Part shown: positions 4,109 through 55,104 of the stretch, one piece after another
How positions within the stretch are numbered: the first letter of the stretch is position 1
How the letters are laid out: every line of letters begins with the position of its first letter
Assembly: GCA_011033025.1 (NCBI GenBank)
Contig: WFMF01000059.1
Span: 372,001-436,000 of the forward strand
Reading direction: 5' to 3'
Length of the DNA: 64,000 bases
DNA from: Beroe forskalii
Lineage: Eukaryota; Ctenophora; Nuda; Beroida; Beroidae
Translations under genes and position numbers: made by a program
Notes under the pieces: generated by a model
What the model was told of the DNA's origin: nothing
Database searches by the model: none
The model's input: only the letters and a program-made list of their open reading frames with translations

Positions 4109-4111
<3 letters not shown>

Positions 4112-5690
4112 CAAAATTCAACAGGACTCAAATGATACAACATTTAACTGATCTGGAACTTCGATAAATTACATCTTCTAAGGATCATACTAAAAAGACA
4201 TAAACGAATTAGTAAACACAATACAATATCAAATTTGAAAAGTCAAGTGATGACGTACGGTCAGAGCACAGTTAAAAGGTTGAATTGTTACAATTTCAAT
4301 GGATCATAAATATCTAAAAGAAAGTTTACATTATCAATGGTTAACATACATCTGAAAGAATACAATATCAATAATGATACATCATAAAAACATCAAACTT
4401 AAATACATCTGAAACTTAAATACATCTGAAACTTAAATACATCTGAAAATATAAACAAAATTCGGGTAAAATGATGGAGAAGATTGAACAATGCAAAATA
4501 ATTCAATATACCGACTGGTAGACTCCTAGTAATAAATAAAATATAGAATTGACTGATAGAAGGGATTTGGGAATGCTCTGGTGCCTATTTAAAGTCATGG
4601 GATTAATTGCCTTGTGTGCGCTTATTGGCTATTATGCGCTCATTACGGATGTTCAGCCCTCCATCTGATTCAAAAGTTTTAAGTTGGTGTTGCCAATAAG
4701 CCTCTTTCTTACTTAACTTATTTGTGATGCTTTCAGGGGTATCCCATGGCTCTGGCTTAACCTTATCTACAAGGGTGACCTTTAATTCTTGTGCTAGAGT
4801 GGCGTTAAACTGAGCCTGACTGTCTATACTAAACTTATGTGCCTTGTTTTGGTTATAATGAACTGCCACTCTACAACTGTTAACTTTTTTCTTAATGTGA
4901 CTCTTATGATTGGAAAAGCGAAGTTTCATAGTGCTATCAGTGCTACCTACATTTTGTTTATTACATACTAAATCGGTTATTACATATATTACATGTTCAT
5001 CTTCACACGAAATAGACTGATAAATATTATGGATTTGTTTGGTAGTTAGTGACTGAATTTTAACTGTATTGTCAGATAAAAAGAATTTACATAAATTACA
5101 TTTTCTACAATTGATGTTACCTAGGACTACACTATTGTCTGTGGTATTGCGTGAATAACGAGAATGAACAAGAGAATCCCCGATAGTCCTAGCCTTTCTG
5201 AAGGTCACAAAGATCTTGTCTTTGGAGACTACATCCTTCAGAGAATCATCCAAGTCTAACAGGTGTTTATGTTTATTAACAGCTCTTGAAGCACCTGAAA
5301 AACTTGGATGAAAGTCTAAGACTAGAGGGATTCTCCTGCTAGTCTCATTACTTTCAATGGTAAAACTAATTTCTGGGTCACCAATAAGATCAAGTCTGTC
5401 AAAATTATCACATTTACTAAATTCTGCAGAAATAAAATCCATATTATAACCTCTGTCAACAAAATGATTAGCATGAGAAGCTTTATGAGTGGTGTATTCA
5501 TTCTCCTCTGAACAAATACGTTTGATACGTTTAGCCACTCCCTGTGGTATGTTATTGCACACATGCTTAGGATGACAAGAGTTGGGGTTGAGATAAGCAT
5601 GCGTGTCTGAGGGCTTTGTGTAAAGAGTGGTATGAATAAAAGAGTCCTTTATATACACTCTTGTGTCTAGGTATTCAATATATATATATA
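4109..5690 (-). mobile_element. 5'-truncated Penelope-like element, copy A
   Basis: Minus-strand copy retaining the 3' untranslated end (4109-4602) and the C-terminal part of the RT/endonuclease ORF (stop near 4603, open up to the TA tract at about 5680). The coding part starts at the EYLDTRVYIKDSF segment that follows the RT core. It then runs through the CRKCNLCKFF cysteine cluster and the GIY-YIG-type region (HVIYVITDLVCNKQNVGST) to the ANKRTQGN terminus. The RT catalytic core is missing, so the copy cannot act by itself. Its 5' end is cut at TA repeats where copy B begins, giving a head-to-tail pair. Confidence 0.9.
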
Positions 5691-5699
5691 TATATATAT

Positions 5700-7205
5700 A
5701 TTTCAAAATTCAACAGGACTCAAATGATACAACATTTAACTGATCTGGAACTTCGATAAATTACATCTTCTAAGGATCATACTAAAAATACATAAACGAA
5801 TTAGTATAACAGAATACAATATCAAATTTGAAAAGTCAAGTGATGACATACGGTCAGAGCACAGTTAAAAGGTTGAATTGTTACAATTTCAATGGATCAT
5901 AAATATCTAAAAGAAAGTTTACATTATCAATGGGTAACATACATCTGAAAGAATACAATATCAATAATAATACATCATAAAAACATCAAACTTAAATACA
6001 TCTGAAAAGTATAAACATAATTCGGGTAAAATGATGGAGAAGATTGAACAATGCAAAATAATTAAATAAGTCGATTAGTAAACTCCTAGTAATAAATAAA
6101 ATATAGAATTGACTGATAGAAGGGATTTGGGAATGCTCTGGTGCCTATTTAAAGTCATGGGATTAGTTGCCTTGTGTACGCTTATTGGCTATTATGCGCT
6201 CATTACGGATGTTCAGCCCTCCATCTGATTCAAAAGTTTTAAGTTGGTGTTGCCAATAAGCCTCTTTCTTACTTAACTTATTAGTGATGCTTTCAGGGGT
6301 ATCCCATGGCTCAGGCTTAACCTTATCTACAAGGGTGACCTTTAATTCTTGTGCTAGAGTGGCATTAAACTGAGCTTGACTGTCTATACTAAACTTATGC
6401 CCCTTATTTTGGTTATAATGCACAGCCACTCTACAACTGTTAACCTTTTTCTTAATGTGACTCTTATGATTGGAAAAGCGAAGTTTCATAGTGCTATCAG
6501 TGCTACCTACATTTTGTTTATTACATACTAAATCGGTTATTACATATATTACATGTTCATCTTCACACGAAATAGACTGATAAATATTATGAATTCGTTT
6601 GGTAGTTAATGACTGAATTTTAACTGTATTGTCAGATAAAAAGAATTTACATAAATTACACTTACCACAATTGATGTTACCTAGGACTACACTATTGTCT
6701 GTGGTATTGCGTGAATAACGAGAATGAACAAGAGAATCCCCGATAGTCCTAGCCTTTCTAAAGGTCACAAAGATCTTGTCTTTGGAGACTACATCCTTCA
6801 GAGAATCATCCAAGTCTAACAGGTGTTTATGTTTATTAACAGCTCTTGAAGCACCTGAAAAACTTGGATGAAAGTCTAAGACTAGAGGGATTCTCCTGCT
6901 AGTCTCATTACTTTCAATGGTAAAACTAATTTCTGGGTCACCAATAAGATCAAGTCTGTCAAAATTATCACATTTACTAAATTCTGCAGAAATAAAATCC
7001 ATATTATAACCTCTGTCAACAAAATGATTAGCATGAGAAGTTTTATGAGTGGTGTATTCATTCTCCTCTGAACAAATACGTTTAATACGTTTAGCCACTC
7101 CCTGAGGTATGTTATTGCACACATGCTTAGGATGACAAGAGTTGGGGTTGAGATAAGCATGCGTGTCTGAGGGCTTCGTGTAAAGAGTAGTATGAATAAA
7201 ATATA
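5700..7205 (-). mobile_element. 5'-truncated Penelope-like element, copy B
   Basis: A second minus-strand copy in tandem behind copy A: 3' end at 5700 right after TA repeats, ORF stop near 6163, C-terminal endonuclease coding up to about 7200, where it is cut at another TA tract. It is nearly identical to copy A (a few substitutions such as CGKCNLCK in place of CRKCNLCK). Both copies lack the RT core. The tandem layout is typical of Penelope elements. Confidence 0.9.
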
Positions 7206-10916: not shown

Positions 10917-12008
10917 ATGGGGGATAGGCCTGTGTTCTCTTGCCACTGTCATGTTTTCAGGATTGATGCTACCACAAAGAAAACTTGGATTCCTGCTGCT
11001 GAAGGGCCAGTCCAAGTGTCTTTCTTCTATGACCCTTCTAAACGGGCATACAGAGTTGTTTCAATAGATAATGGGAAGCCAATTATTAATAGCACAATTG
11101 TTGCTGGAATGACATTCAGTAGAACTGCTCAAAAGTTTGGGCAGTGGAGTGATCAGCGTGCTAATACTGTTTATGGTGTTGGGTTCAGCAATGAAGATGA
11201 GCTTACTAAGTTTGCAGACCAATTTGAAGAAGCTAAGATGTGTGTGGCAAGAGACACTTTGTCTCCTGTAGGGTCTCCACCACCAATAGAACCACATGAT
11301 GAACATACACGTAAGTTAATGTCACCTGGAGTTCCTCCTGATGTACATGGTCAGCGATCAAGTAATTCACTTGATTGTGATTCTTTGAAACCTAAATCCA
11401 TCAGTGATTTAGATTTGTCAGAGGATGTTAGGATTAATGGTTCAGATAATGTTAATGAAAATTTGTTTGACAATCTAAAAATTGAAAATGAAAGGCTCAA
11501 AATGTCTCTTAGCCAATCACAAAACAATGTCAAAAAATGGGAAGTTGAACTCAACACATTAAGGACTAATAATAGTAGACTTCAAGGTGCACTGCATGAA
11601 AACAGCCGTAACATAGAAGAATGGAAGGCACAACTTCTTCAGTATCGTGAGGAGAATAGCAAGTTAAGAAATAGAAATGAAGAGCTAGAACTTGAAATAG
11701 AAAACATTACAAGAACTGGAACCAATTCTCCTAAAATAAGTAAAAAACCTGTCAAGTCATCTCTCAAATCAGAAGAAGTGGAAAGGGTGAAGCAAATCCT
11801 TGAAAAGGTGACTGCTGAGTTAGTTGAAATGAAAGAGGAAAATATGAGACTCAAAACTCAATTGCTCAATATTGATGATCAAAGTGGTCATAGGAAGCAT
11901 GTTTTTGAAAATAGCATGATTTGTCAACTTCAAGCTGACATGGAAATTAAACTGCGTGATTTGGTAGAAATGAATAGAAAACTTTTGACATATTGTCATA
12001 AAGTATGA
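10917..12008 (+). CDS. HOMER: Homer postsynaptic scaffold protein, intronless full-length ORF
   Basis: 363-residue protein. Residues 1-111 form an EVH1/WH1 domain (HVFRID, KKTW, KFGQW, RANTVYGVGF). W24, F74 and G89, which line the PPxxF-binding groove in Homer proteins, are all kept. A polar linker follows (SPPPIEP near residue 125). Predicted coiled coils lie at about 181-265, 286-321 and 330-363, matching the tetramerising tail; the length fits long Homer isoforms (about 350-390). Homer proteins link group I metabotropic glutamate receptors, IP3 and ryanodine receptors and Shank at synapses and in muscle. The start is fixed by an in-frame TAA immediately upstream. Homer genes normally have many introns inside EVH1 and the coiled coil, but none are seen here, so a retrogene is likely. 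The frame is intact, so it may be functional. An ATTAAA lies at 12584-12589. Confidence 0.92.
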   Translation: MGDRPVFSCHCHVFRIDATTKKTWIPAAEGPVQVSFFYDPSKRAYRVVSIDNGKPIINSTIVAGMTFSRTAQKFGQWSDQRANTVYGVGFSNEDELTKFADQFEEAKMCVARDTLSPVGSPPPIEPHDEHTRKLMSPGVPPDVHGQRSSNSLDCDSLKPKSISDLDLSEDVRINGSDNVNENLFDNLKIENERLKMSLSQSQNNVKKWEVELNTLRTNNSRLQGALHENSRNIEEWKAQLLQYREENSKLRNRNEELELEIENITRTGTNSPKISKKPVKSSLKSEEVERVKQILEKVTAELVEMKEENMRLKTQLLNIDDQSGHRKHVFENSMICQLQADMEIKLRDLVEMNRKLLTYCHKV

Positions 12009-35612: not shown

Positions 35613-35670
<58 letters not shown>

Positions 35671-35672
35671 TA
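35613..35672. repeat. (TA)n tract between PLE repeat and 1.9-kb unit
   Basis: TA dinucleotides with one CA. It marks the junction between the PLE terminal repeat and the first higher-order unit. Confidence 0.85.
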
Positions 35673-37590: not shown

Positions 37591-39465
37591 ATATTGGTGA
37601 ATCATCACGTTCGAAAACATTCTGAAGTCTCTTGACAAAATTAATTGTCGCAAGTCAGTAAGGCATACTAACTACAAACTTAACGCTTTGGTTGATTCAA
37701 TGAAGTAGTCAAACTAAAACGAGAAATTGAGTGTACAACTAATTATTACGCAATCGATTTCAAGTCTTCTGTGGACTCTCATCACGGCTGGTGGTGGAAG
37801 AATTAGCGTACACTGATGTGTACTATCCTGCTCTTCTATTTATACGACGTTGCAGTGTTGCACGTGCTGCCTTGGTAACGAATTTCTTGCACGTGCAGAT
37901 TTTGATCTGGAGTCTTGCCGATTTGTCATCTTTCCGAGCTGGAATCTTTCCGAGCTGGAATCTTGCCGAGCTGGAATCTTGCCGAGCTGGAATCTTGCCG
38001 AGCTGAATTCTCGTCTGTACTCCGGTCCGAGCTGGAAACTATGTCCTAGCTGGCTATGTCTTTAATCCGGTCCGAGCTGGAAACTATGTCCTAGCTGGCC
38101 TCGTCTTTGATCTGGTCCGAGCTGGAAACTATGTCCTAGCTGGCTATGTCTTTAATCCGGTCCGAGCTGGAAACTATGTCCTAGCTGGCCTCCTCTGTAA
38201 TCTGGTCCGAGCTGGAAGCTATGTCCTAGCTGGCCTCCTCTGTAATTCGGTCCTAGCTGGAAACTATGTCCTAGCTGGCCTCCTCTGTAATCTGGTCCGA
38301 GCTGGAAACTATGTCCTAGCTGGCCTCTTCTGTAATTCGGTCCTAGCTGGAAACTATGTCCTAGCTGGCCTCCTCTGTAATCTGGTCCTAGCTGGAATCT
38401 ATGTCCTAGCTGGCCTCCCTCTGTAATCTGGTCCGAGCTGAAACTATGTCCTAGCTGGCCTCTCGTCTTTAATCTGGTCCGAGCTGGAAACTATGTCATG
38501 GCTGGCCTCGTCTGTAATTCGGTCCGAGCTGAAACTATGTCCTAGCTGGGGCCTCGTCTGTGATCCTGTCCGAGCTGGAAACTATGTCCTAGCTGGCTAT
38601 GTCTTTAAATCCGGTCCGAGCTGGAAACTATGTCCTTGCTGGCCTTGTCTGTAATCCGGTCCGAGCTGGAAACTATGTCCTAGCTGGCCTCGTCTGTAAT
38701 TCGATCCGAGCTGGAATCTTTGTCCTAGCTGGCCTCGTCTTTACTTCGGTCCGAGCTGGAAACTTTGTCCTAGCTGGCCTCGTCTGTAATCCGGTCCGGA
38801 GCTGGAAACTATGTCCTGGCTGGCCTTGTCTGTAATCTGGTCCGAGCTGGAATCTTTGTCCTGGCTGTCCTCGTCCGTAATTCGGTCCGAGCTGGAAACT
38901 ATGTCCTGGCTGGCCTTGTCTTTAATCCGGTCCGAGCTGGAATCTTTGTCCTGGCTGGCCTTGTCTGTAATTCGGTCCGAGCTGGAAACTATGTCCGAGC
39001 TGGCCTTGTCTGTAATCCTGTCCGAGCTGGAATCTTTGTCCTAGCTGGCCTCGTCTGTAATCCGGTCCGAGCTGGAAACTATGTCCCATGGCCTTGTCTG
39101 TAATCCGGTCCGAGCTGGAATCTTTGTCCTGGCTGGCCTTGTCTGTAATCCGGTCCGAGCTGGAAACCATGTCCTGGCTGGCCTTGTCTGTAATCCGGTC
39201 CGAGCTGGAAACTATGTCCGAGCTGGCCTTGTCTTTAATCCTGTCCGAGCTGGAATCTTTGTCCTAGCTGGATGGCGTCGTAGAGTCAGGTATAGTACAC
39301 ATTGTGTACTGTAGTCTTCTGCCTTCTCCAGTCGACTTGCTCTCTACTGCTAAGTATTTAATAGTGTGGGTGACTATCCTGTCCGAAAACATGAAGTCGT
39401 TCTTTAGTTGAAACTAAAGGAGGAAACGTCTGAGACCGAATCCCGGCATAGCAGAGGCATTAAAT
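37591..39465 (+). repeat. Higher-order repeat unit 2
   Basis: Near-identical head-array-tail copy of unit 1 in direct tandem. It differs by scattered substitutions and short indels (for example a 1-bp insertion in CTCCCTCTG near 38417 and a shortened repeat near 39085). Confidence 0.9.
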
Positions 39466-40396
39466 ATATTGGTGAATCATCACGTTCGAAAACATTCTGA
39501 AGTCGTTTGACAAAAATTAATTGTCGCAAGTCAGTAAGGCATATCAACTACAAACTTAACGCTTTGGTTGATTCAATGAAGTAGTCAAACTAAAACGAGA
39601 AATTGAGTGTACAACTAATTATTACGCAATCGATTTCAAGTCTTCTGTGGACTCTCATCACGGCTGGTGGTGGAAGAATTAGCGTACACTGATGTGTACT
39701 ATCCTGCTCTTCATTTATACGACGTTGCAGTGTTGCACGTGCTGCCTTGGTAACGAATTTCTTGCACGTGCAGATTTTGATCTGGAGTCTTGCCGAGTTG
39801 TCATCTTTCCGCTGGAATCTTTCCGAGCTGGAATCTTGCCGAGCTGGAATCTTGCCGAGCTGGAATCTTGCCGAGCTGGAATTGTTGAGCTGAATTCTCG
39901 TCTGTACTCCGGTTGACTGGAAACTATGTCCTGCTTCTAGCTGGCCTCGTCTTTAATCTGGTCCGAGCTGGAAACTATGTCCTAGCTGGTCTTTAATCCG
40001 GTCTTTGGAACTATGTCCTGGCCTCCTCTGTAATCTGTCCTAGCTGGAATCTGTCTTTAATTCGGTCCTAGCTGGAAACTATGTCCTAGCTGGCCTCGTC
40101 TGTAATTCGGTCCGAGCTGAAACTGTGTCCTGGCTGGCCTCCTCTGTAATCTGGTCCTAGCTGGAATCTATGTCTAGCTGGCCTCTCTGTAATCTGGTCG
40201 AGCTGGAAACTATGTCCTAGCTGGCCTCGTCTTTAATCTGGTCGAGCTGGAAACTATGTCCTGGCTGGCCTCGTCTGTAATTCGTTGAGCTGGAAACTAT
40301 GTCCTAGCTGGGCCTCTGTGATCTGTCCGAGCTGGAAACTATGTCCTGGCTGGCCTTGTCTTAATCCGGTCCGAGCTGGAACTATGTCCGAGCTGG
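39466..40396 (+). repeat. Higher-order repeat unit 3, shortened and degenerate
   Basis: A complete head followed by an array with many deletions inside the 45-bp units (e.g. 39840-40390). It ends at an abrupt switch to the complementary orientation at about 40396. Confidence 0.85.
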
Positions 40397-42115
40397 CCAG
40401 GACAAAGATTCCAGCTGGACAGGATTAAAGACAAGGCCAGCTCGGACATAGTTTCCAGCCTCGGACCGATTACAGACAAGGCCAGCCAGGACATAGTTTC
40501 CAGCTCGGACCGATTACAGACAAGGCCAGCTAGGACAAAGATTCCAGCTCGGACCGATTACAGACAAGGCCAACCAGGACATAGTTTCCAGCTCGGACCG
40601 GATTACAGACGAGGCCAGCTAGGACAAAGATTCCAGCTCGGACAGGATTACAGACAAGGCCAGCTCGGACATAGTTTCCAGCTCGGACCGAATTACAGAC
40701 AAGGCCAGCCAGGACAAAGATTCCAGCTCGGACCGGATTAAAGACAAGGCCAGCCAGGACATAGTTTCCAGCTCGACCGAATTACAGACGAGGACAGCCA
40801 GGACAAAGATTCCAGCTCGGACCAGATTACAGACAAGGCCAGCCAGGACATAGTTTCCAGCTCGGACCGGATTACAGACGAGCCAGCTAGGACAAAGTTT
40901 CCAGCTCGGACCGAAGTAAAGACGAGGCCAGCTAGGACAAAGATTCCAGCTCGGATCGAATTACAGACGAGGCCAGCTAGGACATAGTTTCCAGCTCGGA
41001 CCGGATTACAGACAAGGCCAGCAAGGACATAGTTTCCAGCTCGGACCGGATTAAAGACATAGCCAGCTAGGACATAGTTTCCAGCTCGGACCAGATTAAA
41101 GACATAGCCAGCTAGGACATAGTTTCCAGCTCGGACAGGATCACAGACGAGGCCCCAGCTAGGACATAGTTTCCAGCTCGGACCGAATTACAGAAGAGGC
41201 CAGCCATGACATAGTTTCCAGCTCGGACCAGATTAAAGACGAGGCCAGCTAGGACATAGTTTCAGCTCGGACCAGATTACAGAGGAGGCCAGCTAGGACA
41301 TAGATTCCAGCTAGGACCAGATTACAGAGGAGGCCAGCTAGGACATAGTTTCCAGCTAGGACCGAATTACAGAAGAGGCCAGCTAGGACATAGTTTCCAG
41401 CTCGGACAAGATTACAGAGGAGGCCAGCTAGGACATAGTTTCCAGCTAGGACCGAATTACAGAGGAGGCCAGCTAGGACATAGCTTCCAGCTCGGACCAG
41501 ATTACAGAGGAGGCCAGCTAGGACATAGTTTCCAGCTCGGACCGGATTTAAAGACATAGCCAGCTAGGACATAGTTTCCAGCTCGGACCAGATCAAAGAC
41601 GAGGCCAGCTAGGACATAGTTTCCAGCTCGGACCGGATTAAAGACATAGCCAGCTAGGACATAGTTTCCAGCTCGGACCGGAGTACAGACGAATTCAGCT
41701 CGGCAAGATTCCAGCTCGGCAAGATTCCAGCTCGGCAAGATTCCAGCTCGGAAAGATTCCAGCTCGGAAAGATGACAACTCGGCAAGACTCCAGATCAAA
41801 ATCTGCACGCAAGAAATTCGTTACCAAGGCAGCACGTGCAACACTGCAACGTCGTATAAATAGAAGAGCAGGATAGTACACATCAGTGTACGCTAATTCT
41901 TCCACCACCAGCCGTGATGAGAGTCCACAGAAGACTTGAAATCGATTGCGTAATAATTAGTTGTACACTCAATTTCTCGTTTTAGTTTGACTACTTCATT
42001 GAATCAACCAAAGCGTTAAGTTTGTAGTTAGTATGCCTTACTGACTTGCGACAATTAATTTTGTCAAACGACTTCAGAATGTTTTCGAACGTGATGATTC
42101 ACCAATATATTTAAT
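40397..42115 (-). repeat. Higher-order repeat unit 4, inverted
   Basis: The same 45-bp array now reads as its complement (CCAGCTCGGACCGGATTACA...). It is followed at 41790-42115 by the inverted head with its TATA module. Here one E-box is lost (CTGCACGCAAG). Confidence 0.88.
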
Positions 42116-42757
42116 GCCTCTGCTATGCCGGGATTCGGTCTCCAGACGTTTCCTCCTTTAGCTTCAACTAAAGAACGACTTCATGTTTTCGGACAGGATA
42201 GTCACCCACACTATTAAATACTTAGCAGTGAGAGCAAGTCGACTGGAGAAGGCAGAAGACTACAGTACACAATGTGTACTATACCTGACTCTACGACGCC
42301 ATCCAGCTAGGACAAAGATTCCAGCTCGGACAGGATTAAAGACAAGGCCAGCTCGGACATAGTTTCCAGCTCGGACCGGATTACAGACAAGGCCAGCCAG
42401 GACATAGTTTCCAGCTCGGACCGGATTACAGACAAGGCCAGCCAGGACAAAGATTCCAGCTCGGACCGGATTACAGACAAGGCCAACCAGGACATAGTTT
42501 CCAGCTCGGACCGGATTACAGACGAGGCCAGCTAGGACAAAGATTCCAGCTCGGACAGGATTACAGACAAGGCCAGCTCGGACATAGTTTCCAGCTCGGA
42601 CCGAATTACAGACAAGGCCAGCCAGGACAAAGATTCCAGCTCGGACCGGATTAAAGACAAGGCCAGCCAGGACATAGTTTCCAGCTCGGACCGAATTACA
42701 GACGAGGACAGCCAGGACAAAGATTCCAGCTCGGACCAGATTACAGACAAGGCCAGC
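42116..42757 (-). repeat. Higher-order repeat unit 5, inverted, first part
   Basis: Inverted tail (42116-42300) plus about ten 45-bp units. It is cut at 42757 by a retroposon insertion and resumes at 45654. Confidence 0.88.
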
Positions 42758-45653: not shown

Positions 45654-46993
45654 AGACAAGGCCAGCCAGGACATAGTTTCCAGCTCGGACCGGATTACAG
45701 ACGAGGCCAGCTAGGACAAAGTTTCCAGCTCGGACCGAAGTAAAGACGAGGCCAGCTAGGACAAAGACTCCAGCTCGGATCGAATTACAGACGAGGCCAG
45801 CTAGGACATAGTTTCCAGCTCGGACCGGATTACAGACAAGGCCAGCAAGGACATAGTTTCCAGCTCGGACCGGATTAAAGACATAGCCAGCTAGGACATA
45901 GTTTCCAGCTCGGACAGGATCACAGACGAGGCCCCAGCTAGGACATAGTTTCCAGCTCGGACCGAATTACAGACGAGGCCAGCCATGACATAGTTTCCAG
46001 CTCGGACCAGATTAAAGACGAGGCCAGCTAGGACATAGTTTCAGCTCGGACCAGATTACAGAGGAGGCCAGCTAGGACATAGATTCCAGCTAGGACCAGA
46101 TTACAGAGGAGGCCAGCTAGGACATAGTTTCCAGCTAGGACCGAATTACAGAAGAGGCCAGCTAGGACATAGTTTCCAGCTCGGACCAGATTACAGAGGA
46201 GGCCAGCTAGGACATAGTTTCCAGCTAGGACCGAATTACAGAGGAGGCCAGCTAGGACATAGCTTCCAGCTCGGACCAGATTACAGAGGAGGCCAGCTAG
46301 GACATAGTTTCCAGCTCGGACCGGATTAAAGACATAGCCAGCTAGGACATAGTTTCCAGCTCGGACCAGATCAAAGACGAGGCCAGCTAGGACATAGTTT
46401 CCAGCTCGGACCGGATTAAAGACATAGCCAGCTAGGACATAGTTTCCAGCTCGGACCGGAGTACAGACGAGAATTCAGCTCGGCAAGATTCCAGCTCGGC
46501 AAGATTCCAGCTCGGCAAGATTCCAGCTCGGCAAGATTCCAGCTCGGAAAGATGACAACTCGGCAAGACTCCAGATCAAAATCTGCACGTGCAAGAAATT
46601 CGTTACCAAGGCAGCACGTGCAACACTGCAACGTCGTATAAATAGAAGAGCAGGATAGTACACATCAGTGTACGCTAATTCTTCCACCACCAGCCGTGAT
46701 GAGAGTCCACAGAAGACTTGAAATCGATTGCGTAATAATTAGTTGTACACTCAATTTCTCGTTTTAGTTTGACTACTTCATTGAATCAACCAAAGCGTTA
46801 AGTTTGTAGTTAGTATGCCTTACTGACTTGCGACAGTTAATTTTGTCAAAGGACTTCAGAATGTTTTCGAACGTGATGATTCACCAATATATTTAATGCC
46901 TCTGCTATGCCGGGATTCGGTCTCCAGACGTTTCCTCCTTTAGTTTCAACTAAAGAACGACTTCATGTTTTCGGACAGGATAGTCACCCACAC
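45654..46993 (-). repeat. Higher-order repeat unit 5, remainder, and start of a sixth
   Basis: The array continues after the retroposon to about 46530, followed by the inverted head with its TATA module (CTGCACGTGC, TATAAATAG near 46636-46644) and the start of another tail (46880-46993). The tail is cut at CACACTA, where TA repeats and the hammerhead array begin. Confidence 0.88.
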
Positions 46994-47040
46994 TATATAT
47001 ATATATATATATAGTTGGTTCTAAGATGTTAATCCTGACG

Positions 47041-47115
47041 GTTGTGTGTTTGGCTACCGTGACGCGTTTCGTCCCTGCCAAGGGTACTCATCAGACGGCT
47101 TCTGTGCTCCACAAG
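47041..47115 (-). ncRNA. Hammerhead ribozyme, unit 1
   Basis: Minus-strand order: UUGUG and GCCGU (stem I, 5' side), CUGAUGA, stem II (GU, bulged A, CCC / GGG, AC with a short loop), GAAA, minimal stem III ACGCGU, then GUC and the stem I 3' side ACGGU and CACAA. Predicted cleavage falls between 47061 and 47060. All core nucleotides are canonical. A stem III of two pairs is expected to work best as a dimer. Confidence 0.88.
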
Positions 47116-47443
47116 GATCTTCTGGGAAAATCTTCTTGTAGTCCTGACTGGAATGTCTAAAGAACGCACTGAATTGGTTTGAGGTATCCTGATCTTGTGA
47201 CAAATCAAAATACTACAGTCTCATCCGGTCACATCAGAACCAAGCATCATGTGTTAAGAAACACAGATACCAGGTCACTGATAGACTTAAGGTTCCTAGT
47301 TATGAGACCAACTACCAGAGGGATGTTGGTTACAGTAGAAGGTCCAAGAATGAGGTCTTTGTCTTTGAGAGGAACTCATCGGAGAGTCTGAACAGGATTG
47401 AACATAACTATATATAGTTGGTTCTAAGATGTTAATCCTGACG

Positions 47444-47519
47444 GTTGTGTGTTTGGCTACCGTGACGCGTTTTCGTCCCTGCCAAGGGTACTCATCAGAC
47501 GGCTTCTGTGCTCCACAAG
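47444..47519 (-). ncRNA. Hammerhead ribozyme, unit 2 (core insertion)
   Basis: Same as unit 1, but with one extra A next to the GAAA box (GCGTTTTCG on the plus strand), which would disturb the catalytic core. This is either a true mutation or a homopolymer sequencing error. Confidence 0.7.
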
Positions 47520-47847
47520 GATCTTCTGGGAAAATCTTCTTGTAGTCCTGACTGGAATGTCTAAAGAACGCACTGAATTGGTTTGAGGTATCCTGATCTT
47601 GTGACAAATCAAAATACTACAGTCTCATCCGGTCACATCAGAACCAAGCATCATGTGTTAAGAAACACAGATACCAGGTCACTGATAGACTTAAGGTTCC
47701 TAGTTATGAGACCAACTACCAGAGGGATGTTGGTTACAGTAGAAGGTCCAAGAATGAGGTCTTTGTCTTTGAGAGGAACTCATCGGAGAGTCTGAACAGG
47801 ATTGAACATAACTATATATAGTTGGTTCTAAGATGTTAATCCTGACG

Positions 47848-47923
47848 GTTGTGTGTTTGGCTACCGTGGACGCGTTTCGTCCCTGCCAAGGGTACTCATC
47901 AGACGGCTTCTGTGCTCCACAAG
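47848..47923 (-). ncRNA. Hammerhead ribozyme, unit 3 (insertion at the cleavage site)
   Basis: Same motif with one extra C at the GUC cleavage site (CCGTGGACG on the plus strand). The core is otherwise canonical. Confidence 0.7.
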
Positions 47924-48251
47924 GATCTTCTGGGAAAATCTTCTTGTAGTCCTGACTGGAATGTCTAAAGAACGCACTGAATTGGTTTGAGGTATCCTGA
48001 TCTTGTGACAAATCAAAATACTACAGTCTCATCCGGTCACATCAGAACCAAGCATCATGTGTTAAGAAACACAGATACCAGGTCACTGATAGACTTAAGG
48101 TTCCTAGTTATGAGACCAACTACCAGAGGGATGTTGGTTACAGTAGAAGGTCCAAGAATGAGGTCTTTGTCTTTGAGAGGAACTCATCGGAGAGTCTGAA
48201 CAGGATTGAACATAACTATATATAGTTGGTTCTAAGATGTTAATCCTGACG

Positions 48252-48326
48252 GTTGTGTGTTTGGCTACCGTGACGCGTTTCGTCCCTGCCAAGGGTACTC
48301 ATCAGACGGCTTCTGTGCTCCACAAG
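48252..48326 (-). ncRNA. Hammerhead ribozyme, unit 4
   Basis: Canonical core and stems identical to unit 1. Confidence 0.88.
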
Positions 48327-48654
48327 GATCTTCTGGGAAAATCTTCTTGTAGTCCTGACTGGAATGTCTAAAGAACGCACTGAATTGGTTTGAGGTATCC
48401 TGATCTTGTGACAAATCAAAATACTACAGTCTCATCCGGTCACATCAGAACCAAGCATCATGTGTTAAGAAACACAGATACCAGGTCACTGATAGACTTA
48501 AGGTTCCTAGTTATGAGACCAACTACCAGAGGGATGTTGGTTACAGTAGAAGGTCCAAGAATGAGGTCTTTGTCTTTGAGAGGAACTCATCGGAGAGTCT
48601 GAACAGGATTGAACATAACTATATATAGTTGGTTCTAAGATGTTAATCCTGACG

Positions 48655-48730
48655 GTTGTGTGTTTGGCTACCGTGACGCGTTTCGTCCCTGCCAAGGGTA
48701 CTCATCAGACGGCTTCTGTGCTCCACAAAG
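48655..48730 (-). ncRNA. Hammerhead ribozyme, unit 5
   Basis: Canonical core. The unit differs from its neighbours only outside the core (one-base changes near 48730 and a two-base loss near 48780). Confidence 0.88.
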
Positions 48731-49057
48731 GATCTTCTGGGAAAATCTTCTTTGTAGTCCTGACTGGAATGTCTAAAGAACACTGAATTGGTTTGAGGTA
48801 TCCTGATCTTGTGACAAATCAAAATACTACAGTCTCATCCGGTCACATCAGAACCAAGCATCATGTGTTAAGAAACACAGATACCAGGTCACTGATAGAC
48901 TTAAGGTTCCTAGTTATGAGACCAACTACCAGAGGGATGTTGGTTACAGTAGAAGGTCCAAGAATGAGGTCTTTGTCTTTGAGAGGAACTCATCGGAGAG
49001 TCTGAACAGGATTGAACATAACTATATATAGTTGGTTCTAAGATGTTAATCCTGACG

Positions 49058-49132
49058 GTTGTGTGTTTGGCTACCGTGACGCGTTTCGTCCCTGCCAAGG
49101 GTACTCATCAGACGGCTTCTGTGCTCCACAAG
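49058..49132 (-). ncRNA. Hammerhead ribozyme, unit 6
   Basis: Canonical core and stems identical to unit 1. Confidence 0.88.
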
Positions 49133-49459
49133 GATCTTCTGGGAAAATCTTCTTGTAGTCCTGACTGGAATGTCTAAAGAACGCACTGAATTGGTTTGAG
49201 GTATCCTGATCTTGTGACAAATCAAAATACTACAGTCTCATCCGGTCACATCAGAACCAAGCATCATGTGTTAAGAAACACAGATACCAGGTCACTGATA
49301 GACTTAAGGTTCCTAGTTATGAGACCAACTACCAGAGGATGTTGGTTACAGTAGAAGGTCCAAGAATGAGGTCTTTGTCTTTGAGAGGAACTCATCGGAG
49401 AGTCTGAACAGGATTGAACATAACTATATATAGTTGGTTCTAAGATGTTAATCCTGACG

Positions 49460-49534
49460 GTTGTGTGTTTGGCTACCGTGACGCGTTTCGTCCCTGCCAA
49501 GGGTACTCATCAGACGGCTTCTGTGCTCCACAAG
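49460..49534 (-). ncRNA. Hammerhead ribozyme, unit 7
   Basis: Canonical core and stems identical to unit 1. Confidence 0.88.
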
Positions 49535-49862
49535 GATCTTCTGGGAAAATCTTCTTGTAGTCCTGACTGGAATGTCTAAAGAACGCACTGAATTGGTTTG
49601 AGGTATCCTGATCTTGTGACAAATCAAAATACTACAGTCTCATCCGGTCACATCAGAACCAAGCATCATGTGTTAAGAAACACAGATACCAGGTCACTGA
49701 TAGACTTAAGGTTCCTAGTTATGAGACCAACTACCAGAGGGATGTTGGTTACAGTAGAAGGTCCAAGAATGAGGTCTTTGTCTTTGAGAGGAACTCATCG
49801 GAGAGTCTGAACAGGATTGAACATAACTATATATAGTTGGTTCTAAGATGTTAATCCTGACG

Positions 49863-49938
49863 GTTGTGTGTTTGGCTACCGTGACGCCGTTTCGTCCCTG
49901 CCAAGGGTACTCATCAGACGGCTTCTGTGCTCCACAAG
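49863..49938 (-). ncRNA. Hammerhead ribozyme, unit 8 (stem III insertion)
   Basis: One extra base in stem III (GACGCCGTTTC on the plus strand) breaks the ACGCGU palindrome; CUGAUGA, GAAA and GUC remain. Confidence 0.7.
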
Positions 49939-50266
49939 GATCTTCTGGGAAAATCTTCTTGTAGTCCTGACTGGAATGTCTAAAGAACGCACTGAATTGG
50001 TTTGAGGTATCCTGATCTTATGACAAATCAAAATACTACAGTCTCATCCGGTCACATCAGAACCAAGCATCATGTGTTAAGAAACACAGATACCAGGTCA
50101 CTGATAGACTTAAGGTTCCTAGTTATGAGACCAACTACCAGAGGGATGTTGGTTACAGTAGAAGGTCCAAGAATGAGGTCTTTGTCTTTGAGAGGAACTC
50201 ATCGGAGAGTCTGAACAGGATTGAACATAACTATATATAGTTGGTTCTAAGATGTTAATCCTGACG

Positions 50267-50341
50267 GTTGTGTGTTTGGCTACCGTGACGCGTTTCGTCC
50301 CTGCCAAGGGTACTCATCAGACGGCTTCTGTGCTCCACAAG
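50267..50341 (-). ncRNA. Hammerhead ribozyme, unit 9
   Basis: Canonical core and stems identical to unit 1. Confidence 0.88.
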
Positions 50342-50666
50342 GATCTTCTGGGAAAATCTTCTTGTAGTCCTGACTGGAATGTCTAAAGAACGCACTGAAT
50401 TGGTTTGAGGTATCCTGATCTTGTGACAAATCAAAATACTACAGTCTCATCCGGTCACATCAGAACCAAGCATCATGTGTTAAGAAACACAGATACCAGG
50501 TCACTGATAGACTTAAGGTTCCTAGTTATGAGACCAACTACCAGAGGATGTTGGTTACAGTAGAAGGTCCAAGAATGAGGTCTTTGTCTTTGAGAGGAAC
50601 TCATCGGAGAGTCTGAACAGGATTGAACATAACTATATAGTTGGTTCTAAGATGTTAATCCTGACG

Positions 50667-50741
50667 GTTGTGTGTTTGGCTACCGTGACGCGTTTCGTCC
50701 CTGCCAAGGGTACTCATCAGACGGCTTCTGTGCTCCACAAG
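50667..50741 (-). ncRNA. Hammerhead ribozyme, partial unit 10
   Basis: The ribozyme is complete although the unit stops at 50779, where TA repeats lead into the PLE 3' end. For minus-strand transcription from the PLE side this would be the first ribozyme reached. Confidence 0.85.
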
Positions 50742-50776
50742 GATCTTCTGGGAAAATCTTCTTGTAGTCCTGACTG

Positions 50777-50778
<2 letters not shown>

Positions 50779-50808
<30 letters not shown>
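50779..50808. repeat. (TA)n tract joining retrozyme array and PLE
   Basis: About 30 bp of TA between the truncated tenth unit and TTTCAAAATTCAACAGG of the PLE 3' terminus. Confidence 0.9.
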
Positions 50809-50810
<2 letters not shown>

Positions 50811-53800
50811 CAAAATTCAACAGGACTCAAATGATACAACATTTAACTGATCTGGAACTTCGATAAATTACATCTTCTAAGGATCATACTAAAAAGACAT
50901 AAACGAATTAGTAAACACAATACAATATCAAATTTGAAAAGTCAAGTGATGACGTACGGTCAGAGCACAGTTAAAAGGTTGAATTGTTACAATTTCAATG
51001 GATCATAAATATCTAAAAGAAAGTTTACATTATCAATGGTTAACATACATCTGAAAGAATACAATATCAATAATAATACATCATAAAAACATCAAACTTA
51101 AATACATCTGAAACTTAAATACATCTGAAACTTAAATACATCTGAAAAATATAAACAAAATTCGGGTAAAATGATGGAGAAGATTGAACAATGCAAAATA
51201 ATTCAATATACCGACTGGTAGACTCCTAGTAATAAATAAAATATAGAATTGACTGATAGAAGGGATTTGGGAATGCTCTGGTGCCTATTTAAAGTCATGG
51301 GATTAATTGCCTTGTGTGCGCTTATTGGCTATTATGCGCTCATTACGGATGTTCAGCCCTCCATCTGATTCAAAAGTTTTAAGTTGGTGTTGCCAATAAG
51401 CCTCTTTCTTACTTAACTTATTTGTGATGCTTTCAGGGGTATCCCATGGCTCTGGCTTAACCTTATCTACAAGGGTGACCTTTAATTCTTGTGCTAGAGT
51501 GGCGTTAAACTGAGCCTGACTGTCTATACTAAACTTATGTGCCTTGTTTTGGTTATAATGAACTGCCACTCTACAACTGTTAACTTTTTTCTTAATGTGA
51601 CTCTTATGATTGGAAAAGCGAAGTTTCATAGTGCTATCAGTGCTACCTACATTTTGTTTATTACATACTAAATCGGTTATTACATATATTACATGTTCAT
51701 CTTCACACGAAATAGACTGATAAATATTATGGATTTGTTTGGTAGTTAAAGACTGAATTTTAACTGTATTGTCAGATAAAAAGAATTTACATAAATTACA
51801 TTTTCTACAATTGATGTTACCTAGGACTACACTATTGTCTGTGGTATCGCGTGAATAACGAGAATGAACAAGAGAATCCCCGATAGTCCTAGCCTTTCTG
51901 AAGGTCACAAAGATCTTGTCTTTGGAGACTACATCCTTCAGAGAATCATCCAAGTCTAACAGGTGCTTATGTTTATTAACAGCTCTTGAAGCACCTGAAA
52001 AACTTGGATGAAAGTCTAAGACTAAAGGAATTCTCCTGCTAGTCTCATTACTCTCAATGGTAAAACTAATTTCTGGATCACCAATAAGATCAAGTCTGTC
52101 TAAATTATCACATTTATTAAATTCTGCAGAAATAAAATCCATATTATAACCTCTGTCAACAAAATGATTAGCATGAGAAGCTTTATGAGTGGTGTATTCA
52201 TTCTCCTCTGAACAAATACGTTTGATACGTTTAGCCACTCCCTGTGGTATGTTATTGCACACATGCTTAGGATGACAAGAGTTGGGGTTGAGATAAGCAT
52301 GCGTGTCTGAGGGCTTTGTGTAAAGAGTGGTATGAATAAAAGAGTCCTTTATATACACTCTTGTGTCTAGGTATTCAATGCCTTCCAATTGATTAGTAGC
52401 ATAGTTCATTGTAAAGTTAATTTTCGGATGAAGAGTGTTGATCCAGGCATTGAACTCATGGAGTTTTTCTAAACCCATGATCCACGGACAAAAGATATCA
52501 TCTTTGAACCTGCACCACAAGGCTATAGTGAAATCATTGCTATTGTTAATGATCCTATCAATAGGGTGCATGGCTATGTCCGCATATGAGCATGCATTAT
52601 GCGGTCCCATAGCCGTTCCATTTTTCTGAATGTAAGCAACATTGTTGAAGAAGGAAATGTTGTTCTCCAAAGTAATCCTAGTAGCTTCTAGGATACTAGT
52701 GGTGCTGGGGAACTTAACATCTCTCTGATCAAGCAACTCTTGACATGCATCAAGCCCCATGACGTTATCGATACTGGGGAACATTGCTACAACATCCCAA
52801 CTTACCAAAATAATATTGTCTATCTGATCATTTTGGGTAAGGTTAAATTTATGAATTTCATAAAGGAACTGTGAAGAGTCTTTCAAAACATACGGTAACT
52901 CCACTGCTAATTGTTTGAGATAAAAATCAGACCAAGCAGCTAGATTTTCTGTAGGAGATCCACACCCAGAAGTAATTAAACGCCCAGGGTAATTCGCCTG
53001 GGGTTTGTGCACTTTGTAATTACAGTAGTCATACCCTGGCCGGGATTCTTCTTTGACAATCCAGGATGCAATACGTTTACTGATATCACCTGCCTCCAAT
53101 GAAGTTTCTACCCACTTTTCAATGATTCCATTGATTTCCTTGATCTTTTTCGGAATGGGAGAAGTGTTATTAGCTTCATTGATAGGGATGAATGTGTCTG
53201 CATCACCTAGATGTTCCATCACCTTCTGTTCATAGTTGTCTTGGGTATCCAACACCCAGCCAGTGCCCTTATCAAAATACCTAAATACTGTGTCATCCCA
53301 ACTTTGTAACTGCTTGAGAGCTTGACGATGGTTGGGTGACATATTGTCAAAAGATTTGTTGCAGAGTCCTATAGTTTTCAACTCTTTGACTGTCAGTTGG
53401 AGGTAAAGCTCTAGAGCCTGACTTGTACTCTTAGGAGCTTCCTTCCCAGATGGAGGTATGAGAGCAATTTCAGTGTCTCTGTGAACATTAGGAGTACTGG
53501 AAGGAGTGACTTTACTGAAAAAATGTGCCCATCTGATTTTGCTTACCCACTTGTCGATATCATTATCCCTCTTATCAATTTGTGGATGTGAAGGAGTAGG
53601 GGCAAAATCAGGGCCTAGGGTTAGCACTTCTTTTTGTTCATCAGTAAGAGTCTTTCCTGACAAGTTCAGTATCATCCTGTCATTGACTTTAACTGCCTCA
53701 TTGCCTTTTATGATTTTATTTAGTGTCTGCTTCCTGTTAGATCTAGGCTTGTTCTTCTTTTTCTTAAATTTCCGATTATTTTTCCTATTATTAACTGAAG

Positions 53801-54490
53801 AAGTATTAACAACTGAAGAATGATCCTGATCACTGCACTGATTAACTGAACTGATATACATGAATTTTTCTTTTTGACTGATTAAATTAACGAGTTTCTT
53901 ATGGTGATTCTGTCTCATATTATTAGTTATTGGTACAAAATATACATTGAAGTCTGTAATAACATTATCCACATCCGAAGAGTTGTACAAATTCCTTAAG
54001 ACATCTATCTGAGTATACATAGAGTTTCTCCAAGCTTTAGTCCTGTTTTCATAATCTGTGATGATAAGATCCAAAGTCCTTGATTTTGTGGCTTGAAGAA
54101 GAGTTGAAATTTGAGATGAGAGATCAGGGTTATCATAACTCAGTGTAAATTGACACTGGTCATTGATACCTTGTGGGATAACGTTTGCTGTACGGCACTT
54201 GTTCATGAAATCTGACTGGCATTGTAGTGAGTACAGCTTTTTCATACATCTAAACAGTTTCTGATACTCAGGGTTTGTACAGAGTTGTTTGATGTTTTCA
54301 CTCATAACAAATACGAGAACAAGAGACTAAGGAACAGATAATGTACAAGGTGACAAATGTCAAGAACAGTGGATTCTCCTATGAAAGGAGAATGCAAAAG
54401 AGATTTCCAATCTGAACCAATAAGTTCTTGAGAGTGAATCTTAAGGAAATCCTCTAACACTGATCTGATTTTGAGTCTCTGAATCATATA
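50809..54490 (-). mobile_element. Full-length Penelope-like element (copy E)
   Basis: A 3.7-kb unit: 5' leader (54490-54306), one intact ORF (54305-51303), and a 3' UTR (51302-50809) ending at TA repeats. A partial upstream unit with the same 3' end (54484-55104) lies head-to-tail, giving the Penelope pseudo-LTR arrangement. It is the only copy here with an undamaged complete ORF, hence potentially active or recently so. Confidence 0.92.
51303..54305 (-). CDS. Penelope-like reverse transcriptase with GIY-YIG endonuclease, intact
   Basis: 1000 residues. Region 1-170 is unassigned. Residues 171-192 are highly basic (KFKKKKNKPRSNRK), a likely nuclear/RNA-binding segment. The RT core spans about 420-650: YKVHKPQANYPGRLITSG, SWDVVAMFPSIDN (motif A, catalytic D504), GTAMGPHNACSYADIAMHP (motif B), WCRFKDDIF (motif C, DD at 602-603) and EGIEYLDTRV. 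A cysteine cluster, CRKCNLCKFF (833-842), precedes the GIY-YIG-type nuclease (871-905, HVIYVITD, NVGST, LRFSNH with R896), ending in KEAYWQHQLKTF (conserved Glu968) and DGGLN. The order RT then GIY-YIG defines endonuclease-bearing PLEs, which prime reverse transcription at nicked chromosomal DNA. The usual second Tyr (YIG) is Asn here. M1 is the first Met after an AT-rich leader. Confidence 0.95.
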   Translation of the reverse strand: MSENIKQLCTNPEYQKLFRCMKKLYSLQCQSDFMNKCRTANVIPQGINDQCQFTLSYDNPDLSSQISTLLQATKSRTLDLIITDYENRTKAWRNSMYTQIDVLRNLYNSSDVDNVITDFNVYFVPITNNMRQNHHKKLVNLISQKEKFMYISSVNQCSDQDHSSVVNTSSVNNRKNNRKFKKKKNKPRSNRKQTLNKIIKGNEAVKVNDRMILNLSGKTLTDEQKEVLTLGPDFAPTPSHPQIDKRDNDIDKWVSKIRWAHFFSKVTPSSTPNVHRDTEIALIPPSGKEAPKSTSQALELYLQLTVKELKTIGLCNKSFDNMSPNHRQALKQLQSWDDTVFRYFDKGTGWVLDTQDNYEQKVMEHLGDADTFIPINEANNTSPIPKKIKEINGIIEKWVETSLEAGDISKRIASWIVKEESRPGYDYCNYKVHKPQANYPGRLITSGCGSPTENLAAWSDFYLKQLAVELPYVLKDSSQFLYEIHKFNLTQNDQIDNIILVSWDVVAMFPSIDNVMGLDACQELLDQRDVKFPSTTSILEATRITLENNISFFNNVAYIQKNGTAMGPHNACSYADIAMHPIDRIINNSNDFTIALWCRFKDDIFCPWIMGLEKLHEFNAWINTLHPKINFTMNYATNQLEGIEYLDTRVYIKDSFIHTTLYTKPSDTHAYLNPNSCHPKHVCNNIPQGVAKRIKRICSEENEYTTHKASHANHFVDRGYNMDFISAEFNKCDNLDRLDLIGDPEISFTIESNETSRRIPLVLDFHPSFSGASRAVNKHKHLLDLDDSLKDVVSKDKIFVTFRKARTIGDSLVHSRYSRDTTDNSVVLGNINCRKCNLCKFFLSDNTVKIQSLTTKQIHNIYQSISCEDEHVIYVITDLVCNKQNVGSTDSTMKLRFSNHKSHIKKKVNSCRVAVHYNQNKAHKFSIDSQAQFNATLAQELKVTLVDKVKPEPWDTPESITNKLSKKEAYWQHQLKTFESDGGLNIRNERIIANKRTQGN

Positions 54491-55104
54491 TATTTCAAAA
54501 TTCAACAGGACTCAAATGATACAACATTTAACTGATCTGGAACTTCGATAAATTACATCTTCTAAGGATCATACTAAAAATACATAAACGAATTAGTATA
54601 ACAGAATACAATATCAAATTTGAAAAGTCAAGTGATGACGTACGGTCAGAGCACAGTTAAAAGGTTGAATTGTTACAATTTCAATGGATCATAAATATCT
54701 AAAAGAAAGTTTACATTATCAATGGGTAACATACATCTGAAAGAATACAATATCAATAAAAATATAAACAAAATTCGGGTAAACAGATGGAGAAGATTGA
54801 ACAATGCAAAATAATTCAATACCGACTGGTAGACTCCTAGTAATAAATAAAATATAGAATTGACTGATAGAAGGGATTTGGGAATGCTCTGGTGCCTATT
54901 TAAAGTCATGGGATTAATTGCCTTGTGTGCGCTTATTGGCTATTATAAGCTCATTACGGATGTTCAGCCCTCCATCTGATTCAAAAAGTTTTTAAGTTGT
55001 TGCCAATAAGCCTCTTTCTTACTTAACTTATTTGTGATGCTTTCAGGGGTATCCCATGGCTCTGGCTTAACCTTATCTACAAGGGTGACCTTTAATTCTT
55101 GTAT
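54484..55104 (-). mobile_element. Truncated upstream PLE unit acting as pseudo-LTR
   Basis: Repeats the family 3' UTR and the last ~60 codons of the ORF (with small indels near 54988-55000), then ends at TTCTTG before a TA tract. It sits directly 5' of the full-length copy in the same orientation. The gap in the 3' UTR near 54758 shows that it is not simply identical to the 3' copy. Confidence 0.85.

What the first reader, a model, noticed from the sequence alone, without database searches (positions are those of the whole stretch)
47014..50779. Tandem array of ten hammerhead ribozymes: a probable animal retrozyme locus
Every ~403-bp unit carries on the minus strand CUGAUGA, a stem II hairpin, GAAA, the minimal palindromic stem III ACGCGU, and a GUC cleavage site, with stem I formed by GCCGU/ACGGU plus UUGUG/CACAA. 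Seven of ten cores are fully canonical. Unit size, tandem layout and type I fold match what is known of retrozymes, i.e. non-autonomous retroelements that yield self-cleaved circular RNAs. The specific 403-bp family and its setting may be undescribed.
Basis: partly seen in the sequence, partly recalled or inferred. Interest (0 to 1): 0.92.

Follow-up and report, generated by a model that had tools for sequence, protein, structure and literature searches.

The report
Ribozyme repeat inserted at TA microsatellites
A 403-base DNA repeat carrying a self-cutting RNA motif sits as short tandem runs inside TA-repeat tracts of an animal genome, with ends that look copied from a circular or repeated RNA by the same kind of machinery that inserts neighbouring Penelope-type jumping genes.

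Summary
In detail: 47006-50780 is a 9.4-unit array of a 403-bp repeat with ten type I hammerhead cores on the minus strand, seven of them canonical. Helix III is one A-U pair closed by palindromic CGCG, the weak 'dimeric' form described for amphibian retrozymes. The 216-Mb host assembly shows four arrays, three independent. All four start at the same point of the ribozyme-strand RNA (CCAAC|UAUAUAUA, joined to host (TA)n) and end 5' at three different points. The start lies about 50 nt 3' of the cleavage site, so a self-cleaved linear monomer could not give these inserts; a circular or multimeric template with internal initiation could. No ~50-bp solo copy was found (17 of 17 matches lie in arrays). 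Two Penelope-like element (PLE) families end in (TA)n at 29 of 30 and 20 of 20 loci examined, and three PLE types carry UAUAUAU at their tandem junction. I conclude: a non-LTR retrozyme, probably copied by TA-targeting PLEs. Self-cleavage, RNA circles and the helper are untested.

The parts
47006..50780 (-). tandem array of the 403-bp retrozyme unit, 9.37 units; 3' end of the ribozyme-strand RNA at 47014/(TA)n, 5'-truncated end at about 50778
47061..47094 (-). hammerhead core CTGATGA...GTC, unit nearest the RNA 3' end, canonical; cleavage between 47061 and 47060
47464..47498 (-). hammerhead core, one extra A (GAAAACGCGTC)
47869..47902 (-). hammerhead core, one extra C at the cleavage site (GTCCACGG)
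48272..48305 (-). hammerhead core, canonical
48675..48708 (-). hammerhead core, canonical
49078..49111 (-). hammerhead core, canonical
49480..49513 (-). hammerhead core, canonical
49883..49917 (-). hammerhead core, one extra G in helix III (ACGGCGTC)
50287..50320 (-). hammerhead core, canonical
50687..50720 (-). hammerhead core, canonical
47409..47416 (-). example of the internal TATATATA between units (nt 48-55 counted from the cleavage site), the point at which all four arrays found begin
46994..47013 (.). (TA)10 tract joined to the RNA-3' end of the array
50779..50807 (.). (TA)n tract between the 5'-truncated end of the array and the 3' end of a Penelope-like element on the same strand
50808..54485 (-). 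Penelope-like element PLE-A, one full unit; its 3' end TTGAAA joins (TA)n at 50808
54486..54492 (-). internal TATATAT at the PLE-A tandem junction (TTGAAA-TATATAT-GATTC)
51303..54305 (-). intact 1000-aa PLE-A ORF with reverse-transcriptase-like and GIY-YIG-like motifs (motif names recalled); candidate helper
54493..55101 (-). 5'-truncated second PLE-A copy in partial tandem, bounded upstream by (TA)n; same insert layout as the retrozyme arrays
4110..5677 (-). 5'-truncated PLE-A copy with (TA)n at both ends
5701..7200 (-). 5'-truncated PLE-A copy with (TA)n at both ends

Best explanation
This is a non-autonomous, non-LTR retrozyme. Its ribozyme-strand RNA self-cleaves (probably best when two hammerheads pair through ACGCGU) and is circularised, or is used as an uncleaved multimer. 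The UAUAUAUA inside each unit pairs with nicked (TA)n target DNA, and reverse transcription starts there and runs round the circle (or along the multimer) for 1.8 to 9.4 units until it stops at a variable 5' point. The enzyme is probably supplied by co-resident Penelope-like elements, which use the same target and show the same internal (UA)n start and partial-tandem layout. Shown from sequence: the repeat, the hammerhead cores, one fixed and one variable end, (TA)n at both ends, and the PLE ends. Inferred: self-cleavage, the circle, target-primed initiation, and PLE supply in trans (PLEs were already proposed as the likely helpers in PMC7229834).
For: The four arrays found (three independent; two share a duplicated locus) all begin at the same unit position, CCAAC|TATATATA next to host (TA)n; their 5' ends fall at unit positions 310, 140, 140 and about 325 (in C552 the aligned part starts at 328 after a 13-bp repetition). 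The start lies about 50 nt beyond the cleavage site, yet every array crosses that site; no solo ~50-bp insert was found (17 of 17 matches lie in arrays). In the window array no variant is shared by neighbouring units; one C-run deletion occurs in two separate units. (TA) of at least 8 nt follows the 3' end of PLE-A at 29 of 30 fetched loci and of PLE-B at 20 of 20, against 763 of 20,000 random positions in the same loci. PLE-A, PLE-B and PLE-E carry TATATAT at a tandem junction, as the retrozyme does. A448 against A439 shows a PLE-A copy inserted in a (TA)n that is empty in A439. Long open PLE frames exist.
Against: No Rfam hammerhead hit at gathering score or E<=10; the genome scan with RF00163 was also empty, though it scored only 73 of 27,947 candidates. 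Only 10 of 17 hammerhead copies are canonical. In the minimum-energy fold of the circle the stem I strand ACGGU pairs elsewhere, and in the 83-nt hammerhead stretch another fold (-20.0) beats the hammerhead pairing (-12.8). The retrozyme shares no detectable sequence with PLE-A or PLE-B beyond TA (PLE-E not tested). No convincing hammerhead was found in the PLE sequences held, unlike PLEs in the literature. The start hairpin is significant for PLE-A and PLE-B (p about 0.01) but not for the retrozyme (0.15) or PLE-E (0.18) alone. The PLE-A query contained TA, which favours copies with TA; the PLE-B query did not. The ORF gives no significant Pfam or PDB match. The retrozyme copy number is very low.
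Confidence: 0.72

Rival explanations
1. A narrower version of the best explanation: the template is always an uncleaved multimeric transcript of an existing array; no circle is involved and the ribozyme is dispensable for insertion.
For: Any multimer contains UAUAUAUA with further units on its 5' side; the window array could supply such transcripts. In the anole PLE, hammerhead mutants did not change insertion in vitro (PMC11167929, parts 1-2 of 4 read). All four arrays cross the cleavage site. The predicted circle does not form the hammerhead.
Against: Published animal retrozymes accumulate as circles (PMC7229834). A canonical core in 7 of 10 window units and 10 of 17 overall suggests that the ribozyme mattered until recently.
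Confidence: 0.3
2. Ordinary satellite DNA: the array grew by unequal crossing-over or circular-DNA reintegration, and the hammerhead is a relic.
For: Head-to-tail array; units differ mainly by indels; three of the four arrays found lie within 30 kb of one contig.
Against: One end is fixed at the same 8-bp TA run in all four arrays while the other varies, which is the asymmetry of reverse transcription with 5' truncation. One array lies on another contig. No variant is shared by neighbouring units.
Confidence: 0.12
3. A retrozyme mobilised by some other reverse transcriptase (a LINE, for example), with the shared (TA)n target being a coincidence of TA-rich DNA in this genome.
For: (TA) of 8 nt or more is found at 183 of 20,000 random window positions and 763 of 20,000 in PLE loci, so the tracts are common; no shared sequence with PLE-A or PLE-B.
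Against: (TA)n lies at both ends of all four arrays (and window). The 5' end of each array lies next to a PLE 3' end in the same orientation (PLE-A, PLE-E, PLE-B). The fixed start at UAUAUAUA mirrors three PLE types.
Confidence: 0.15
4. Not a functional ribozyme: a chance hammerhead-like sequence in a repeat.
For: No Rfam match; no covariation evidence, because the copies are nearly identical; the hammerhead pairing is not the minimum-energy fold.
Against: The core pattern is expected about once in 17 Mb, and stems I and II are also present. The one-pair helix III with palindromic tetraloop is the form reported for axolotl HHR_Amex1 (PMC7229834).
Confidence: 0.08

Closest known systems
Metazoan non-LTR retrozymes (Cervera & de la Pena 2020, PMC7229834, parts 1-4 of 6 read)
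   Same: Type I hammerhead, 150-450 bp head-to-tail unit, low GC, dimers to multimers, co-resident PLEs; helix III like the axolotl HHR_Amex1. The paper already proposes PLEs as strong helper candidates and tandem cDNA from a primed circle.
   Different: Very few copies (four arrays found); (TA)n at both ends of every array; a definable internal start site UAUAUAUA. A review of the same group (PMC7761336, passages read) states that animal retrozymes show no conserved motif pointing to their helper. The exact core was not found in IMG/VR.
Penelope-like elements (anole Poseidon PAc, PMC11167929, parts 1-2 of 4 read; Adineta vaga Penelope, PMC3846280, passages read)
   Same: 5' truncation, partial tandem copies, reverse transcription starting inside the RNA, AT-rich targets.
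   Different: The retrozyme has no long ORF. In PAc the start is an AC-rich stem-loop not homologous to the target; here the start is UA-repeat sequence homologous to a TA-repeat target.
Plant LTR retrozymes (PMC4918200, seen in the search listing only)
   Same: Hammerhead-bearing non-autonomous retroelements with circular RNA intermediates.
   Different: Type III hammerheads, LTRs, PBS and PPT, about 700 bp between ribozymes (features as restated in PMC7229834).

Membership tests
Metazoan non-LTR retrozyme | Type I hammerhead in each unit | tested here: met
   17 core copies in four arrays, 10 of 17 fully canonical; ten in the window. By motif and stems only
Metazoan non-LTR retrozyme | Head-to-tail units of about 150-450 bp, dimer to multimer | tested here: met
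   403 bp; 9.37, 1.79, 1.79 and about 2.35 units (the last is 1.71 + 0.63 across an insertion)
Metazoan non-LTR retrozyme | GC below about 45-50%, no LTR/ORF | tested here: met
   43.4% GC; no ORF of 120 aa or more in the array; units only head-to-tail
Metazoan non-LTR retrozyme | Dispersed by retrotransposition | tested here: met
   Fixed RNA-3' end and variable 5' end in four arrays, three independent; an inference from ends, not an observed event
Metazoan non-LTR retrozyme | Loop 1-loop 2 tertiary contacts of a canonical type I hammerhead | tested here: inconclusive
   Internal loop in stem I and a 6-nt loop II are present, but contacts were not modelled; unconstrained folds prefer other pairings
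Metazoan non-LTR retrozyme | Self-cleavage in vitro; linear and circular unit-length RNA | not testable with these tools
   No RNA data or bench assay
Metazoan non-LTR retrozyme | Co-existence with PLEs in the genome | tested here: met
   54 protein match rows from 46 of 521 candidates scored, several with long open frames; PLE label rests on motifs and layout
Rfam Hammerhead_1 (RF00163) | Score above gathering threshold | tested here: not met
   No hit in the window at gathering score or in the array at E<=10; none in the genome, where 73 of 27,947 candidates were scored; no short-helix-III positive control was run
Penelope-like element (neighbouring ORF) | RT motifs A/B/C plus GIY-YIG endonuclease motif | tested here: inconclusive
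   Conserved SWDVxAMFP, AMGPHxxCxYADIAM, DDI and VIY...VGST in two families (motif names recalled); no significant Pfam or PDB match
Penelope-like element (neighbouring ORF) | Partial tandem copies with 5' truncation | tested here: met
   50808-55101 in partial tandem; truncated copies at 4110-5677 and 5701-7200

The most novel reading that the evidence does not exclude
Circular ribozyme RNAs act as templates for rolling-circle, target-primed reverse transcription by Penelope-like enzymes. A UAUAUAUA in the circle serves both as the primer-pairing site on TA microsatellites and as a mimic of the PLEs' own UA-containing start hairpin, so the retrozyme parasitises PLEs without detectable hammerheads through a shared start signal and not through shared ribozyme sequence. 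The clustering of indels just 5' of the ligation point could be a trace of the enzyme crossing the joint.
Probability: 0.4. Interest if true: 0.8.

Novelty: new variant of a known kind. Interest (0 to 1): 0.62.

Why it matters
Which enzyme moves animal retrozymes, and how a circular RNA is primed, are left as proposals in the papers read (PMC7229834, PMC7761336). This locus gives a definite start site, a definite target and candidate helper elements in one genome, so the question can be tested directly. Library searches for PLEs with microsatellite or TA targets and for retrozymes with target-primed reverse transcription gave nothing on this point in their listings (listings seen; PMC3846280 and PMC8969392 looked into by passages). 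It would also extend retrozymes to a probable ctenophore: 'ctenophore' + 'hammerhead ribozyme' gave 0 papers, 'Mnemiopsis' + 'hammerhead' + 'ribozyme' gave 1 (not read).

Tried and rejected
Rfam scans for a hammerhead: negative. A genome-wide core pattern for other hammerhead families: 14 of 26 matches lie outside this family, like the control of 13, so no second family is claimed. Hammerheads in the PLE sequences held: 9 descriptor hits at 5 places outside the family in 684,628 bases counted over both strands, none convincing. Retrozyme derived from a PLE: no local similarity above shuffles for PLE-A and PLE-B. A pre-insertion empty site for the retrozyme: none found, because the flanks are themselves repeats, many ending in TA. 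Exact core in IMG/VR: 0 matches. PLE identity by Pfam or PDB: no significant match. CpG-linked sequencing error as the whole cause of the indel hotspot: not excluded (outside the hotspot 1 event near CpG against 1.7 expected; duplicated flanks 13 against 8.3, p 0.07).
Full report
OBSERVATION. The array is real. Tandem Repeats Finder gives 47006-50780, period 403, 9.4 copies, 99% matches. On the minus strand ten CTGATGA cores lie one unit apart. Seven of ten read GACGAAACGCGTC^ACGG; three carry one extra base. In the 216-Mb assembly the core pattern has 26 matches: 12 in this family and 14 elsewhere, like the 13 of the reversed control. Rfam finds no hammerhead at gathering score in the window or at E<=10 over the array; RF00163 gives nothing in the genome, but only 73 of 27,947 candidates were scored. 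Helix III is a single A-U pair capped by palindromic CGCG. Cervera & de la Pena 2020 (PMC7229834, parts 1-4 of 6 read) describe this form for the axolotl HHR_Amex1, which cleaves poorly as a monomer and well as a dimer. I think this explains the Rfam miss, but I ran no positive control. In the minimum-energy circle (-110.9; shuffles -94.6, z -3.1, 60 shuffles) the hammerhead is not formed, and in an 83-nt stretch another fold (-20.0) beats the hammerhead pairing (-12.8).

GENOME COPIES. The unit occurs in four arrays: the window (W, 9.37 units), C680:439.4k (A439, 1.79), C680:448k (A448, 1.79) and C552:91.8-94.5k (1.71 + 0.63 units, split at TTAA by a 1,813-bp insert with inverted ends). The first look gave 5 candidates, all scored; the tool warns that counts are lower bounds. 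A439 and A448 lie in duplicated DNA (flank substitutions 13 of 1,006 and 45 of 2,035) and count as one insertion, leaving three independent ones.

ENDS. In ribozyme-strand orientation all four arrays end at the same base, CCAAC|TATATATA, running into host (TA)n. The 5' ends are at unit positions 310, 140, 140 and about 325, each also at (TA)n with a 2-nt AT/TA overlap (the C552 alignment starts at 328, after a 13-bp repetition). Position 1 is the first base after the cleavage site, so the start (nt 48-55) lies about 50 nt past the cut. A self-cleaved linear monomer copied from there would give a ~50-bp insert. All 17 matches to the tail lie inside arrays, and every array crosses the cut. The template was therefore circular or multimeric and initiation was internal. 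The fixed 3' end with a variable 5' end argues against DNA recombination. In W no variant is shared by neighbouring units; one C-run deletion occurs in two separate units.

PENELOPE-LIKE ELEMENTS. Beside the array on the same strand is a PLE (PLE-A) with an intact 1000-aa ORF, 51303-54305. It and a 37%-identical family (PLE-B, L093) share reverse-transcriptase-like and GIY-YIG-like motifs (motif names recalled). Pfam and PDB searches give nothing significant, so the PLE label rests on motifs and layout. I fetched 30 PLE-A loci of 82 match rows (40 of 122 candidates scored) and 20 PLE-B loci of 48 match rows (40 of 790 scored). At least 8 nt of (TA), counted from 2 nt before the end, follow the 3' end in 29 of 30 and 20 of 20; the miss is L052. 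Random positions: 763 of 20,000 in the same loci, 183 of 20,000 in the window. Cautions: the PLE-A query itself held TA, the PLE-B query did not; some loci report a neighbour's junction (L027/L035, L040/L047, L044); L049 and L068 are tandem junctions; L056 and L065 are flanks of the C552 array. Truncated PLE-A copies in the window have (TA)n at both ends, and A448 against A439 shows a PLE-A copy inserted in (TA)n. PLE tandem junctions read TTGAAATATATATGATTC (PLE-A, two in the window), AAGAAAATATATATAACTC (PLE-B, L068) and TTAAATTATATATCTACC (PLE-E, L077 and L079; assigned to PLEs by adjacency to PLE ORFs on C236), so each RNA holds an internal UAUAUAU. Each retrozyme array has a PLE 3' end directly upstream in the same orientation: PLE-A (W), PLE-E (A439/A448), PLE-B (C552). 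With three independent cases, same orientation alone has chance 1/8.

START HAIRPIN. The UA run lies in the upper part of a predicted hairpin in all four elements. Arm complementarity against random centres gives p = 0.012 (PLE-A), 0.0105 (PLE-B), 0.15 (retrozyme) and 0.18 (PLE-E), combined 0.0015, but the test was chosen after seeing the pattern. By folding energy only PLE-B stands out strongly (z -5.8; the others -0.7 to -2.0). The anole PLE starts in an AC-rich stem-loop not homologous to its target (PMC11167929, parts 1-2 of 4 read); here start and target are homologous.

AGAINST. No shared sequence between retrozyme and PLE-A or PLE-B beyond TA; no convincing hammerhead in the PLE sequences held; the folds above; very low copy number; no RNA evidence.

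UNEXPLAINED. Of 18 merged differences from consensus over 6,161 compared bases, 7 fall in the 11 nt just 5' of the cleavage point (binomial 5.6e-7 before correcting for the choice of window; next best window elsewhere 2). This CpG-dense stretch could be an assembly-error hotspot, a DNA mutation hotspot, or a trace of reverse transcription across the ligated joint. A439 and A448 differ there although they appear to descend from one duplication, which speaks against the last. Outside the hotspot neither array shows a substitution from consensus, while their flanks differ by about 1.9%, suggesting conversion or later insertion.

HOST. Contig C1134 (13,339 bp, 82.5% AT, no tRNA found by aragorn, COX1 with four in-frame TGA; AGA read as Arg at positions that I recall as conserved) resembles ctenophore mitochondrial genomes, which lack tRNAs (PMC6991124, passages read). 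The host is therefore probably a ctenophore.

VERDICT. [quoted passage not shown] PLE help had been proposed before (PMC7229834); what is new here is the insertion signature, not the ribozyme.

Noticed in passing
unit nt 393-403 (e.g. window 47061-47071) in four arrays: 7 of 18 differences from consensus cluster in the 11 nt just 5' of the cleavage site; cause unknown, possibly assembly error in a CpG-dense palindrome.
   Followed up: partly
L021 and L022 (C680:439k and 448k): Duplicated loci: flanks differ by 1.3-2.2% substitutions, while the arrays show substitutions only at the hotspot.
   Followed up: partly
C552:92017-93831: 1,813-bp element with AGGGGTAGT...ACTACCCCT ends inserted at TTAA (piggyBac-like target, recalled) inside a retrozyme array.
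   Followed up: partly
window 35667-42757 and 45654-46996: Large inverted and direct copies of a 45-bp-repeat element, 82-99% alike in the rows listed, whose end TATAGT[G/T]TGGGTGAC also abuts TA tracts on other contigs.
   Followed up: partly
window 9875-10494: 620-bp TTCAT pentanucleotide run of about 125 copies.
   Followed up: no
window 10917-12008: Single-exon 363-aa ORF with a WH1 (EVH1) domain, Homer-like (the Homer name is recalled).
   Followed up: no
G000:C1134: 13.3-kb contig resembling a ctenophore mitochondrial genome: TGA in frame in COX1, no tRNAs found, all ORFs of 80 codons or more on one strand.
   Followed up: partly
L034, L053, L071 and the C552 array: PLE-type 3' ends face each other across one shared (TA)n tract at several loci.
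   Followed up: no
window 1044-1103 and 1412-1481: Short imperfect CCTAAC/AGGGTT telomere-like runs inside the contig.
   Followed up: no
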